Source: Tilletiaria anomala UBC 951 (lineage: Eukaryota > Basidiomycota > Exobasidiomycetes > Georgefischeriales > Tilletiariaceae). Taken from it: a DNA stretch of 39,240 nucleotides. The stretch spans positions 1 to 39,240 of the forward strand of contig NW_013546887.1 in assembly GCF_000711695.1 (NCBI RefSeq). The letters are read 5' to 3'. Under the pieces are notes generated by a model. That model did no database searches. It was not told the origin of the DNA and saw only the letters and a program-made list of their open reading frames with translations. The first letter of the stretch is position 1. Every line of letters starts with the position of its first letter. The position numbers were made by a program, and so were the translations under genes. This document shows, one piece after another, positions 23,435 to 27,248 of this stretch.

Positions 23435-23822
23435 GTCGGGGATTCAAAATGACAACTCGAGGCACGCTGCTGGTTGTAAGCAGCTGCTGATACTTCTTTG
23501 CAGGCTGTTCGTCCGATGTCCAGGTTGCAATGTACGGTGTAATAATTGGCCAACTGGAGTCCAAAGCAAGGCCATCATCGGGCTTTGGGGCTTTGAGCCA
23601 CAAAGCTGATAGTCGGCGACTGGCGATCACTTCGCGTCCCGTTCTCATCTCCCTGCGGTGTGGTGCCCATCCCACCCACAGGGTGCACGTGAGACATTTG
23701 CCTGCTTGTATATGTATCAACAAGCACCTTCATTGCAACAGACCATCATCCTGATCGCATCCAGGCTCCAGGTGCTGTCTAAGGATATGGTCTGGACGTA
23801 CAGCTAGAGCTCCAAGCGCACT
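23435..23822. promoter_or_regulatory. Divergent promoter region of tsc10 and the securin candidate
   Basis: This 388-bp gap lies between two divergent start codons. A CACGTG E-box is at 23686-23691. No clear TATA box is seen. Confidence 0.4.
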
Positions 23823-25729
23823 ATGGATGCGCTTTCACCCGCCAAAGAGAATGACTGGCAGCACCAGCACCAGCGGCAGCGCAGCATGTCGCCCACGAAG
23901 ATGGCCATCGGATGCTCTCCGTCCAAGGCGAGCCGGATGGTGAAAGAGAGAGGAGGCGAGAAAACAGCAAGCTCTAGCCGGCATCGTCTAGATAGCTCCC
24001 CTTCGAAGGGCCACTCCGCCGCTCATTCACGCGACAAGCTGCTGCTGTCTCCCGCGAAAAAAGCAGCGCTGGGCGATAAGAGCAACCACCGTGGCACCCA
24101 GAGCCCGTCCAAGCCGCAGGCCTCTGGTGCTGCTGGCGATAACGGCGCTGCGGACGACGACATCGAGAAGGACATCATCAGCAAGAGTCACTCAAAAAAT
24201 GTGAGCCTGCAGCCTCCGAGGAACATGTCACCTACCAAGTCTAGGTCCAAAAGCGAGGGCAAGTCCAGGGAGAGGCAGCAACAGCAGACTGAGACAGCGG
24301 GAAACGAGACGATCGCAGGCCTGTCTGCCTCATTATCACCCCCAGCTTCCAGTGCTCATCTCAATGACGCGAAGGTCATCCTCACTCCGCCATTGGCAAA
24401 TGATCCGCCAGCATTCATGACACCGGCTGCAAACATCGGAAAAGCGGGCATGGCCAAGTACAGGCGGGGCGAAGCGATGGATGCGGCTATGGGTGTAGGC
24501 ATGGGTTTGGATGATCCCATAATGGCAGCTGGAGAGATGGGAGCGGCGGCAGGTGTAGATGGAGGAGCTGAAGTGGCGCAAAGCTCCGAGCCAGACATGG
24601 TGATGACGGAGGAGGAGCTTTATCCTGAGATCGAATACATGCCGCCGAGTGACTATGCCAAAAGTGAGTTGCCATGCCGTCAGATGTTGTACGCGCGAAC
24701 TGGACACTCATCTCCTCCCTGCCTCTCGTAGATCCGCCAGTGCACTTCCCACCGATCTTAGACGGCATGCCACGCGCCAGCGAACTGGGTGACATCATGC
24801 GCTCTTTGCCCTTCAGCGGCTTCGTCTCGCACGCGCGCGCCGCGCTCGATCCCGTCGAGCGCGATCTCTTCCAGGTCGACATGGAAACCACGATGTCGAG
24901 CTTTGACGCGTTCGACAGGGAGCTCGAGCGCAAGCTGGACGAGTACTATGCCAGCTGCACGCTATGGGACAACGACGAGGAAACCGAGTACTTCTTCAGC
25001 ACGCCGCTATGGGAGCAGCAGCCTAAGGGGCTACGGAACCGAGATGCTCCAGCAAAGTCGAATGTGGCCATCACTGCGGTCGCGCGTTCAAATACACAGA
25101 GCACCAAAGGAGGGATCGGCGGTGGGAGAGCTAGTCGCGCACCCTCTGCCATGTCCAATCGCTCTGCCACTGGCAAATCGATCAAGGCTGCTCCCAGTGT
25201 GACAGGTGCAGGCAGTGCTAGCAGTGTGAGTGCGAAGAGAGCAGCCACGGTCAACAAGGGCGCTGTGTCAGCACGGGCAACCGCGTTGCGTCCTGGCTCG
25301 CGCATCGTTGCCAACGCGAGTACCAGCGTAAACGGCGTGCGCTCCACCGCCGCTGCGACTGCGACTGCATATGCAAGCGTCGCTAGGCGCACGACCAGTA
25401 CCGGCGCCGGTGCTGCCCCTTCCAAGCAAGCTGCAGCGGCAAGCATGAGTGTAGCTTTGAGCCGAACACTTGGCATTCAGACGCCAAGCTCAATCACTTC
25501 CGCCGCGAGAAGTGGGGTGCGACCACCTGGCGTGCTTAGAGCAACGAAGCAGCAGGTGCGCCAGCCTGCGCCCTCGGCTACAAGAGCTGGCCCAGGAGCA
25601 TCATCGAAGAAGCGTCCACCACCACTATTTGACTGGCGCGCAAATGAGCACGATCGCCTTACCGAATGGACCGAGACGACGCTTGCGCAGATGGAGGCGG
25701 AGGTTGATGCCCGCGTGGTGGAGCTGTGA
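23823..25729 (+). CDS. Disordered cell-cycle-type protein with KEN box and S-P-x-K sites (securin candidate)
   Basis: Two exons, 23823-24663 and 24732-25729, are joined across a 68-nt intron (GTGAGT..TAG) in phase 1, giving 612 aa. The N-terminus holds a KEN degron at residues 8-10, RxxL destruction-box-like motifs at 53-56 and 70-73, and seven S-P-x-K CDK consensus sites at 5, 23, 32, 59, 76, 94 and 136. A conserved-looking segment follows at 269-275 (E-I-E-Y-M-P-P), close to the splice joint, then an acidic, Tyr/Phe-rich stretch (about 281-380). The remaining C-terminus is Ala/Thr/Ser-rich and basic. An N-terminal KEN box, RxxL boxes, clustered CDK sites and a short acidic segment with an E-Y-x-P-P core are the layout of securins, which inhibit separase until the APC/C destroys them. 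That identity is inference: securins are too divergent for me to be sure by eye. Other mitotic APC/C substrates are possible. Confidence 0.8.
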
Positions 25730-25902: not shown

Positions 25903-27248
25903 CTAGCTCGACGTTACACGTCTCGTCGGCTGCACCTTGACGCCGCTCTCGAGCAGGTGCTTGAGCACAGGGTCGCTGGAGCCCATGGAGCCAGCGAGGA
26001 GCTTGGCTGCGTTGCCGAGCACGTCGGAGCTGGGCAACTCGATCTTGTCCGGTACGATAGGGTCCGCTCTAGTGGGGCCGATGTTGACGATCATCACGCG
26101 CTTGCGCTCCTCGACAGCCTGTTTGACGAGGCGGAAGGCGCTGTACGTAGCGAGAGAGCTTCCGACAAGCATGAAGCTGTCGCTGGACGCTACGAGCGCG
26201 TGCGAGCGGTCGCGCAGCTCGTCTGGAACCGACTCGCCGAAAAAGACCACCGCAGGTTTCAGCACGCCACCGCAAGAAGGACATGGCGGGTACATGAAGG
26301 AGGAGTAGTTCGTATCAGCACCGAGCTGCACATCCCCGTCCGGGTTCGTTTTGAGCAGGGTGTTGCTCGCGGCCATCTCGGCGGAAAAATCTGCCCATCG
26401 CGGGTTCCAGTCTGTCAGGACATCTTGGAACGCAGCACGCGAGCCGCGGAAGCCGCAGCCAGGGGCGTAGGACGAACCGGTGGATGTGTTGGACCAATGA
26501 GATGCGGTGGCACGCGGATTGTGTAGATGCGGGAGCGCTAGACGCGCGTGCATGTCTGGATCGAACAGCGCCGAGGCTGATGATGGGAAGGAGGTTTCGG
26601 CGCGTCCGTCACCCCTGTTTGCTCTTGCACTGGTCCCATCCAGTCTGGAAACGCAGACAACATACGCGAGCGTGCCGTGCAGCTCGAGGATCGAAGCCGC
26701 AGCTAGCGAGGGCGAGGGGGTGGCAGCGTGATGCAAGCTGTCAACATTTTGGGTGATGAATTCCGGCACGTGTCCAAGGCGCTGCAGCGCTGCTATAGAG
26801 TAGTGCGTCTTATTGGGCAGCGCATGGCGCACGGGTGGGAATCCGAGGTAGGATCGGGACCAGTAGCGCTGCCTGTACGTGTGCCCCTTGTCGCTCAGCG
26901 CCGTAAATTCGTGAAAGAAGATCGGTCGGTATGTCTTGTGAACTGTGTAATGTCCATTTTCACCCCGATACGGCGCGATGCCAGAGTCGACAGAAACACC
27001 TGCTCCTGGCCTTGTCAACCAGGCGGAATGAAAACAAAAGGGTGCCTGTCATGCGTCAACGATGCAGTCTCCCTCCGAGAGCTGCTGACTGAGAATGAGC
27101 CTCGACGAAACTCACCGGTCATGATCAAGTTCTTCCGTCGGCCTCTGCGCAGGAACTCAGCGACCATCTCCCCGGCCTGCGGAACGGTGTATTCGATGAT
27201 AGACCGCGTGTTCCCATTGTGAGGGATGCTTGGGATGGAGATGCGCAT
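25903..27248 (-). CDS. SIRT4-like NAD-dependent sirtuin
   Basis: Two exons, 27248-27116 and 27005-25903, with a 110-nt intron (GTGAGT..CAG, phase 1), give 411 aa. The NAD loop reads T-G-A-G-V-S-V-D-S-G-I at about 44-54. The block Y-R-Q-R-Y-W-S-R-S-Y-L-G-F-P-P is characteristic of class II (SIRT4) enzymes. Q-N-V-D is at 130-133 and the catalytic His at 154 (L-E-L-H-G-T). The zinc ligands are Cys162, Cys228, Cys286 and Cys289. G-S-S-L and the N-I-G strand near the C-terminus complete the Rossmann fold. SIRT4 proteins act in mitochondria as deacylases, lipoamidases or ADP-ribosyltransferases; I see no long targeting peptide here. The first zinc pair, normally C-x-x-C, is split by a 65-residue insertion. 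The C-terminus converges on the securin candidate (173 bp apart). Confidence 0.92.

What the first reader, a model, noticed from the sequence alone, without database searches (positions are those of the whole stretch)
23823..25729. Candidate basidiomycete securin
The protein has a KEN box at residues 8-10, RxxL boxes at 53 and 70, seven S-P-x-K CDK sites in the first 140 residues, and a short E-I-E-Y-M-P-P segment at 269-275 followed by an acidic aromatic stretch. Securins are hard to find by similarity because only the degrons and a short separase-binding segment are conserved. This layout is what one would expect of one.
Basis: partly seen in the sequence, partly recalled or inferred. Interest (0 to 1): 0.7.

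Follow-up and report, generated by a model that had tools for sequence, protein, structure and literature searches.

The report
Probable fungal securin (separase inhibitor)
This gene most likely makes securin, the disposable guard protein that keeps the chromosome-separating enzyme separase switched off until cell division is ready; it is a new example of a known kind that a standard family search misses.

Summary
A two-exon gene (23823-24663 and 24732-25729, +) encodes a 612-aa Ala/Ser-rich protein with KEN at 8-10, seven SPxK sites in residues 1-140 and EIEYMPP at 269-275. The RxxL boxes are at chance level.

The securin reading is well supported, but not by a family model: Pfam Securin, which recognises Cut2 and Pds1, does not match. 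The segment fits the separase pseudosubstrate consensus, with Pro at P1 as in Pds1. It shares YPEIE with human securin and IEYMP plus PPVH with Cut2 (letters recalled). A hydrophobic-Pro pair lies 17 residues after P6, as human LPE does. The basic/acidic/basic charge order is Cut2's. In the genome [DE]-hydrophobic-EYxPP occurs once, here. Of 12 [DE]IExxPP sites, only this one has KEN in the part of its ORF that was read.

A separase is present; active-site residues checked are kept. The kleisin genes carry LPPLEDxP, which resembles the candidate's FPPILDGMP: a possible docking motif.

Orthologues and co-folding could not be tested. Verdict: new member of a known family, confidence about 0.82.

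The parts
23823..24663 (+). exon 1 (residues 1-280 and first base of codon 281)
   Evidence: gene model; open frame
24664..24731 (+). intron, 68 nt, GT...AG
   Evidence: reading through it ends the frame at a stop in its last bases (ORF 23808-24731)
24732..25729 (+). exon 2 (rest of codon 281 to residue 612, and stop)
23844..23852 (+). KEN box, residues 8-10 (APC/C degron)
   Evidence: 22 of 20,000 shuffles have KEN in the first 15 residues
23835..24239 (+). seven S-P-x-K CDK-type sites, residues 5 to 139
   Evidence: 0 of 20,000 shuffles
23979..24041 (+). two RxxL boxes (residues 53-56 and 70-73); weak, not above chance
24627..24647 (+). EIEYMPP, residues 269-275: proposed separase pseudosubstrate (P6 E, P5 I, P4 E, P1 P, P1' P)
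24746..24772 (+). FPPILDGMP, residues 286-294: proposed docking motif at the LPE position, similar to the kleisins' LPPLEDxP
24806..24820 (+). LPFSG, residues 306-310, resembling human securin LPLSG 139-143; LP[FL]SG is not rare (4 times in the sample, this one included)
24609..25045 (+). acidic region 263-385 (net charge -16; includes the intron in these coordinates), proposed separase-binding stretch
25046..25726 (+). basic C-terminal tail 386-612 (net charge +22), as in Cut2

Best explanation
The gene encodes this organism's securin, a Cut2-like inhibitor and probably chaperone of separase. Before anaphase the acidic middle (about 263-385) lies extended and antiparallel along separase. EIEYMPP fills the active site as an uncleavable pseudosubstrate: Glu at P6 and P4 bind the basic patch, Ile sits at P5, and Pro replaces the P1 Arg. 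FPPILDGMP then covers the exosite used by cohesin kleisins. The N-terminal KEN box (and perhaps RxxL boxes) lets APC/C ubiquitylate it at anaphase onset, which frees separase to cut the kleisins. The SPxK cluster is a CDK1 input that tunes degradation or binding. Shown: sequence, motifs, rarity in the genome, a separase and two kleisin genes. Inferred: binding, inhibition, degradation, phosphorylation.
For: (1) Pseudosubstrate. Separase sites are [D/E/S]-hydrophobic-ExxR (PMC12609080) and securins replace the P1 Arg (PMC10317155). Human EIEKFFP with F118 at P1 (PMC6858450), Pds1 DIEIAPQ (5u1s_B), candidate EIEYMPP. A 7-residue score built from human plus Pds1 alone puts this site first of 263,043 windows in the genomic sample; with five upstream residues added one other window ties with it, among 251,043. 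(2) YPEIE 267-271 is identical to human 111-115 (letters checked against 7nj1_B). (3) Hydrophobic-Pro at +17 from P6 (F286-P287), as human L130-P131 from E113; Pds1 VP at +14. (4) BLASTP to recalled Cut2: E 2e-4 for the single comparison; local alignment score reached in 0 of 1,000 whole-protein and 1 of 1,000 local shuffles. (5) Charge order: candidate +12/-7/-16/+22, Cut2 +12/-14/+13. (6) KEN at 8-10; recalled Pds1 8-10 and Cut2 11-13. (7) [DE]-hydrophobic-EYxPP once in 18.4 Mb, here; of 12 [DE]IExxPP sites only this one has KEN in the part of its ORF that was read. (8) Separase present; residues aligned to human H2003, C2029, R2067, D2070 and R2101 are the same, R2071 is Lys.
Against: Pfam Securin PF04856 recognises the recalled Cut2 and Pds1 (E 3.7e-58 and 1.6e-59) but not this protein or segment (E up to 10), nor any place in the genome. 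Local alignment to human and to Pds1 is no better than whole-protein shuffles (126 and 777 of 1,000 as good). Two small profile HMMs did not pick the protein out: Cut2 plus Pds1, with the DIE motifs correctly aligned, rank 200 of 1,658; with human added, its motif misaligned, rank 28 of 1,849 (shuffled copies are among the rows). RxxL is at chance level. The reversed-pattern control gave 3 hits against 1, so that motif alone proves nothing. A weak hepatitis-core-like match at 347-427 is unexplained (Pfam E 0.0014, below cut-off; best PDB chain E 1.1e-4 from two stretches, neither significant alone). Separase has Ala for R2017, part of the site that binds LPEE in human. 612 aa is long for a securin. 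No orthologues and no binding data.
Confidence: 0.82

Rival explanations
1. A different disordered CDK1 and APC/C substrate (a spindle, kinetochore or replication factor) in which the EIEYMPP segment is a coincidence.
For: SPxK clusters and KEN occur in many mitotic proteins (general knowledge). A motif of that specificity occurs a few times per genome by chance (3 hits of the reversed control). No family model matches and a Cut2 plus Pds1 HMM does not single the protein out. RxxL at chance level.
Against: The motif is followed at the human spacing by a hydrophobic-Pro pair; flanks agree with human securin (YPEIE) and Cut2 (PPVH); the charge order matches Cut2; of 12 [DE]IExxPP sites no other had KEN in the part of its ORF that was read.
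Confidence: 0.12
2. A separase-binding protein that is not securin: a substrate or a shugoshin-like inhibitor that uses a pseudosubstrate segment.
For: SGO2-MAD2 is proposed to use a non-cleavable pseudosubstrate (PMC10317155, passages). Docking-like motif shared with the kleisins.
Against: P1 is Pro, not Arg, so this is not a substrate site. No shugoshin domain match in Pfam. N-terminal KEN followed by a separase segment is the securin order.
Confidence: 0.05
3. Not a real gene: a long open frame in GC-rich DNA.
For: No database relative found, though the collections of 46 and 47 are not fungal.
Against: Two long exons joined by a canonical intron, with the Cut2-like PPVH just after the junction; KEN and SPxK far above shuffles.
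Confidence: 0.01

Closest known systems
Cut2, securin of Schizosaccharomyces pombe (Pfam PF04856)
   Same: IEYMP core, PPVH after it, N-terminal KEN, basic/acidic/basic order (Cut2 letters recalled, family confirmed)
   Different: 612 aa against 301; a seven-residue insertion between the core and PPVH; no clear D-boxes; not detected by PF04856
Pds1, securin of Saccharomyces cerevisiae (PDB 5U1S/5U1T)
   Same: [DE]IExxP with Pro at P1; hydrophobic-Pro downstream; KEN at 8-10 (Pds1 N terminus recalled)
   Different: no significant alignment; recalled Pds1 has no basic C-terminal tail
Human securin PTTG1 (PDB 7NJ1)
   Same: YPEIE identical; hydrophobic-Pro at +17 from P6; LPFSG against LPLSG
   Different: human P1 is Phe; overall alignment not significant; 11 more residues between P6 and LP[FL]SG here

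Membership tests
Securin (separase inhibitor) | Match to the curated family model PF04856 above cut-off | tested here: not met
   the model does detect recalled Cut2 and Pds1
Securin (separase inhibitor) | Pseudosubstrate [D/E/S]-hydrophobic-E-x-x with non-Arg P1 | tested here: met
   EIEYMP 269-274
Securin (separase inhibitor) | LPE-like docking element 11-14 residues after the pseudosubstrate | tested here: inconclusive
   F286-P287 at the human spacing, but no Glu directly after it; kleisin-like FPPILDGMP instead
Securin (separase inhibitor) | N-terminal APC/C degrons | tested here: met
   by sequence only: KEN at 8-10 (22 of 20,000 shuffles); RxxL boxes at chance level
Securin (separase inhibitor) | Intrinsic disorder, degron part basic, separase-binding part acidic | tested here: inconclusive
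   charge order as expected; on the charge-hydropathy line residues 1-260 and 261-400 lie just on the disordered side (-0.023, -0.045), 401-612 does not (+0.040)
Securin (separase inhibitor) | Significant sequence similarity to a known securin | tested here: inconclusive
   Cut2 (recalled letters) E 2e-4, 0 and 1 of 1,000 shuffles; human and Pds1 not significant; small HMMs negative
Securin (separase inhibitor) | A separase with intact active site in the same genome | tested here: met
Securin (separase inhibitor) | Binds and inhibits separase; destroyed by APC/C at anaphase | not testable with these tools
   needs co-folding of two chains or experiments
Securin (separase inhibitor) | Conservation of the segment in orthologues | not testable with these tools
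   no other fungal genome was available; protein scans of viral and prokaryotic collections found no relative

The most novel reading that the evidence does not exclude
This securin inhibits by double mimicry. Besides the pseudosubstrate it carries a version (FPPILDGMP) of a docking motif LPPLEDxP found in both kleisin genes of this organism, so separase here reads a repeated kleisin motif that securin copies. Its mixture of human-like (YPEIE, LPFSG) and Cut2-like (EYMPP, PPVH) features would also speak for a common origin of animal and fungal securins, which have been called non-homologous (PMC3195147).
Probability: 0.3. Interest if true: 0.5.

Novelty: new member of a known kind. Interest (0 to 1): 0.38.

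Why it matters
A 2011 survey found separase in all Dikarya sampled but securin in fewer than half, and called fungal and animal securins non-homologous (PMC3195147, passages). A concrete candidate that the Pfam model misses suggests that some such gaps are failures of detection. It gives a query for finding securins in related fungi, and the LPPLEDxP-type motif gives a testable idea about substrate docking on separase.

Tried and rejected
Family and structure searches with the full protein and with the segment gave no securin. The hepatitis core hit (Pfam E 0.0014, 18.6 bits against a cut-off of 22.6; PDB E 1.1e-4 for a tandem core construct whose two stretches have E 0.73 and 2.3) is most likely chance, but was not explained. 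Human, Pds1 and Cut2 fragments searched against the whole genome as single proteins: nothing, without a positive control. HMMs from two or three known securins failed: in the three-sequence alignment the human motif is misplaced, in the two-sequence one the motifs are aligned and it failed all the same. Contig scans of the viral and prokaryotic collections gave no relative. A scan for [DES]-hydrophobic-ExxR found none in any frame of at least 90 aa at the first kleisin locus (L008) and, at the second (L009), DFEPDR in a 335-aa minus-strand frame that also holds LPPLDD, plus three in other frames; so substrate and inhibitor sites could not be matched. Papers: ten searches. In the listings no title or abstract start named a basidiomycete securin (securin with Ustilago, basidiomycete or Cryptococcus); most of the listed papers were not opened, so this does not show that none exists. 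Motif letters were in no held paper. Structure prediction was not used: only single chains are offered. An earlier count gave the intron one base too long; the coordinates here are right.

Full report
WHAT IS THERE. The window lies in an unnamed 18.4 Mb assembly (G000, contig 135). The gene runs from ATG 23823 to stop 25729 on the + strand, with one 68-nt intron (24664-24731), and encodes 612 aa. Pfam finds a SIR2-family gene on one side and a short-chain dehydrogenase exon on the other, both on the minus strand. Three exceed chance in shuffles of the whole protein: the early KEN (22 of 20,000), the SPxK cluster (0 of 20,000) and the pseudosubstrate pattern followed by a hydrophobic-Pro pair (7 of 20,000). 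RxxL does not (1,924 of 5,000 as many or more). The genomic sample was the window, the separase and kleisin loci and twenty 10-kb stretches of contigs 1-20. In it 5 of 176 stop-to-stop ORFs of at least 200 aa contain KEN and 3 of 176 have at least five [ST]Px[KR]; this gene's first exon is in both sets, and it is the only ORF of at least 60 aa with the pseudosubstrate pattern.

WHY SECURIN. Separase cuts after Arg at [D/E/S]-hydrophobic-ExxR (PMC12609080, passages). Securin occupies the same groove with the P1 Arg replaced (PMC10317155, passages). In human the segment is EIEKFFP with P1 at F118, followed by LPE at 130; budding yeast has VPE (PMC6858450, passages). A Cut2 fragment is reported to bind separase through a DIE motif that is also present in Pds1 and C. 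elegans securin (PMC4626109, passages). Here the segment is EIEYMPP. P1 is Pro, as in Pds1 DIEIAP (letters checked against 5u1s_B). YPEIE is identical to human 111-115 (letters checked against 7nj1_B). A hydrophobic-Pro pair follows 17 residues after the P6 Glu both in human (L130) and here (F286). LPFSG 306-310 resembles human LPLSG 139-143, whose LP mattered in the human assay only when combined with the LPE change; LP[FL]SG occurs four times in the sample, this one included, so it is weak evidence. A 7-residue score from human plus Pds1 ranks this site first of 263,043 windows; a 12-residue one gives a tie with one other window, among 251,043.

COMPARISON WITH CUT2. My recalled Cut2 sequence is recognised by PF04856 over nearly its whole length, which confirms the family but not each letter. 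BLASTP aligns residues 265-340 of the candidate to Cut2 123-208 with E 2e-4 for the single comparison. The local alignment score was reached in 0 of 1,000 whole-protein and 1 of 1,000 local shuffles. The order of charge is the same: basic N terminus, acidic middle, basic tail. Against this, human and Pds1 segments align no better than shuffles (126 and 777 of 1,000), an HMM of Cut2 plus Pds1 ranked the protein 200 of 1,658 and one with human added 28 of 1,849, and PF04856 itself does not match the candidate or anything in the genome.

ANOTHER WEAK MATCH. Residues 347-419 resemble hepatitis core antigen (Pfam E 0.0014, below the curated cut-off; best PDB chain E 1.1e-4, made of two stretches with E 0.73 and 2.3). 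I take this as chance, but it is not explained.

RIVALS IN THE SAME GENOME. The pattern for [DE]-hydrophobic-EYxPP occurs once in the genome, in this gene; the reversed control occurs three times, so rarity alone proves little. The looser [DE]IExxPP occurs 12 times, its reversed control three times. Looked at one by one within about 1.5 kb on either side, 7 of 12 lie in frames shorter than 100 codons (one of them has a stop inside the motif), and only this gene has KEN in the same stop-to-stop frame. The other four are L037 (117 aa), L045 (158 aa), L042 (307 aa, EIELRPP) and L036 (633 aa, EIEIRPP, two SPxK, running off the start of the fetched stretch, so a KEN further upstream was not excluded). 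Upstream exons were not examined. A securin whose motif lacks PP, as Pds1 does, would have been missed.

THE PARTNER. The genome has a separase (PF03568, E 6.0e-88 and 6.5e-23 for two stretches in separate frames). Its best solved relatives are the chains 5fc2, 5fby and 5fc3 (E about 5e-51; Chaetomium by recall). Residues aligned to human H2003, C2029, R2067, D2070 and R2101 are the same; R2071 is Lys, R2008 is Gln and R2017 is Ala. In human, R2067, R2071 and R2101 form the patch beside the active site, and R2017 belongs to the site that takes the LPEE of securin (PMC12609080). So the active-site patch is kept, while the LPEE site differs in one residue, in line with the missing Glu in FPPILDGMP. 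The other two residues of that site were not checked.

A POSSIBLE SHARED DOCKING MOTIF. PF04824 finds two kleisin genes, here called Rad21 (contig 4) and Rec8 (contig 5); the names were not tested. The DNA pattern for LPPLEDxP occurs 6 times in the genome and its reversed control 0 times: three in the Rad21 region (two in the frame with the PF04824 match, one in a frame upstream), one in the Rec8 region (a frame upstream of the match), one in a 109-aa frame on contig 27 and one in a 98-aa frame on contig 51. That the upstream frames are exons of the same genes is inferred. The candidate has FPPILDGMP at the position of LPE. The expression [LF]PP[LI].D occurs 10 times in the sample (22 of 20,000 shuffles of residues 276-345); [LF]PP[LIM][LE]D.{1,2}P occurs five times, four at the kleisin loci and one here (1 of 20,000 shuffles). 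Both expressions were written after seeing the sequence, so the counts are only a guide. It is a lead, not a result.

VERDICT. Best read as a new, divergent member of the securin family that the Pfam model misses. Confidence 0.82. Binding, inhibition and destruction are inferred. That the organism is a basidiomycete was not tested.

Noticed in passing
L008 and L009 (kleisin loci, G000:C4 and C5): LPPLEDxP occurs six times in the genome and its reversed control none; four of the six are at the two kleisin loci (three and one).
   Followed up: partly
L034 (G000:C27:87729, minus strand): A 109-aa frame with ETLPPLEDMP, upstream of a 455-aa charged frame on the same strand; possibly one gene and a further separase partner, or chance. 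Gene not identified.
   Followed up: partly
window 24940-25014: Short internal duplication in the acidic region: EYYASCTLW and EYFFSTPLW, 15 residues apart; could be paired aromatic anchors.
   Followed up: no
window 24929-25147 (residues 347-419 of the protein): Weak, unexplained resemblance to hepatitis core antigen (Pfam E 0.0014, below cut-off; best PDB chain E 1.1e-4); probably chance.
   Followed up: no
window 25903-27045 (minus): SIR2-family gene next to the candidate securin, with two matched stretches in Pfam.
   Followed up: no
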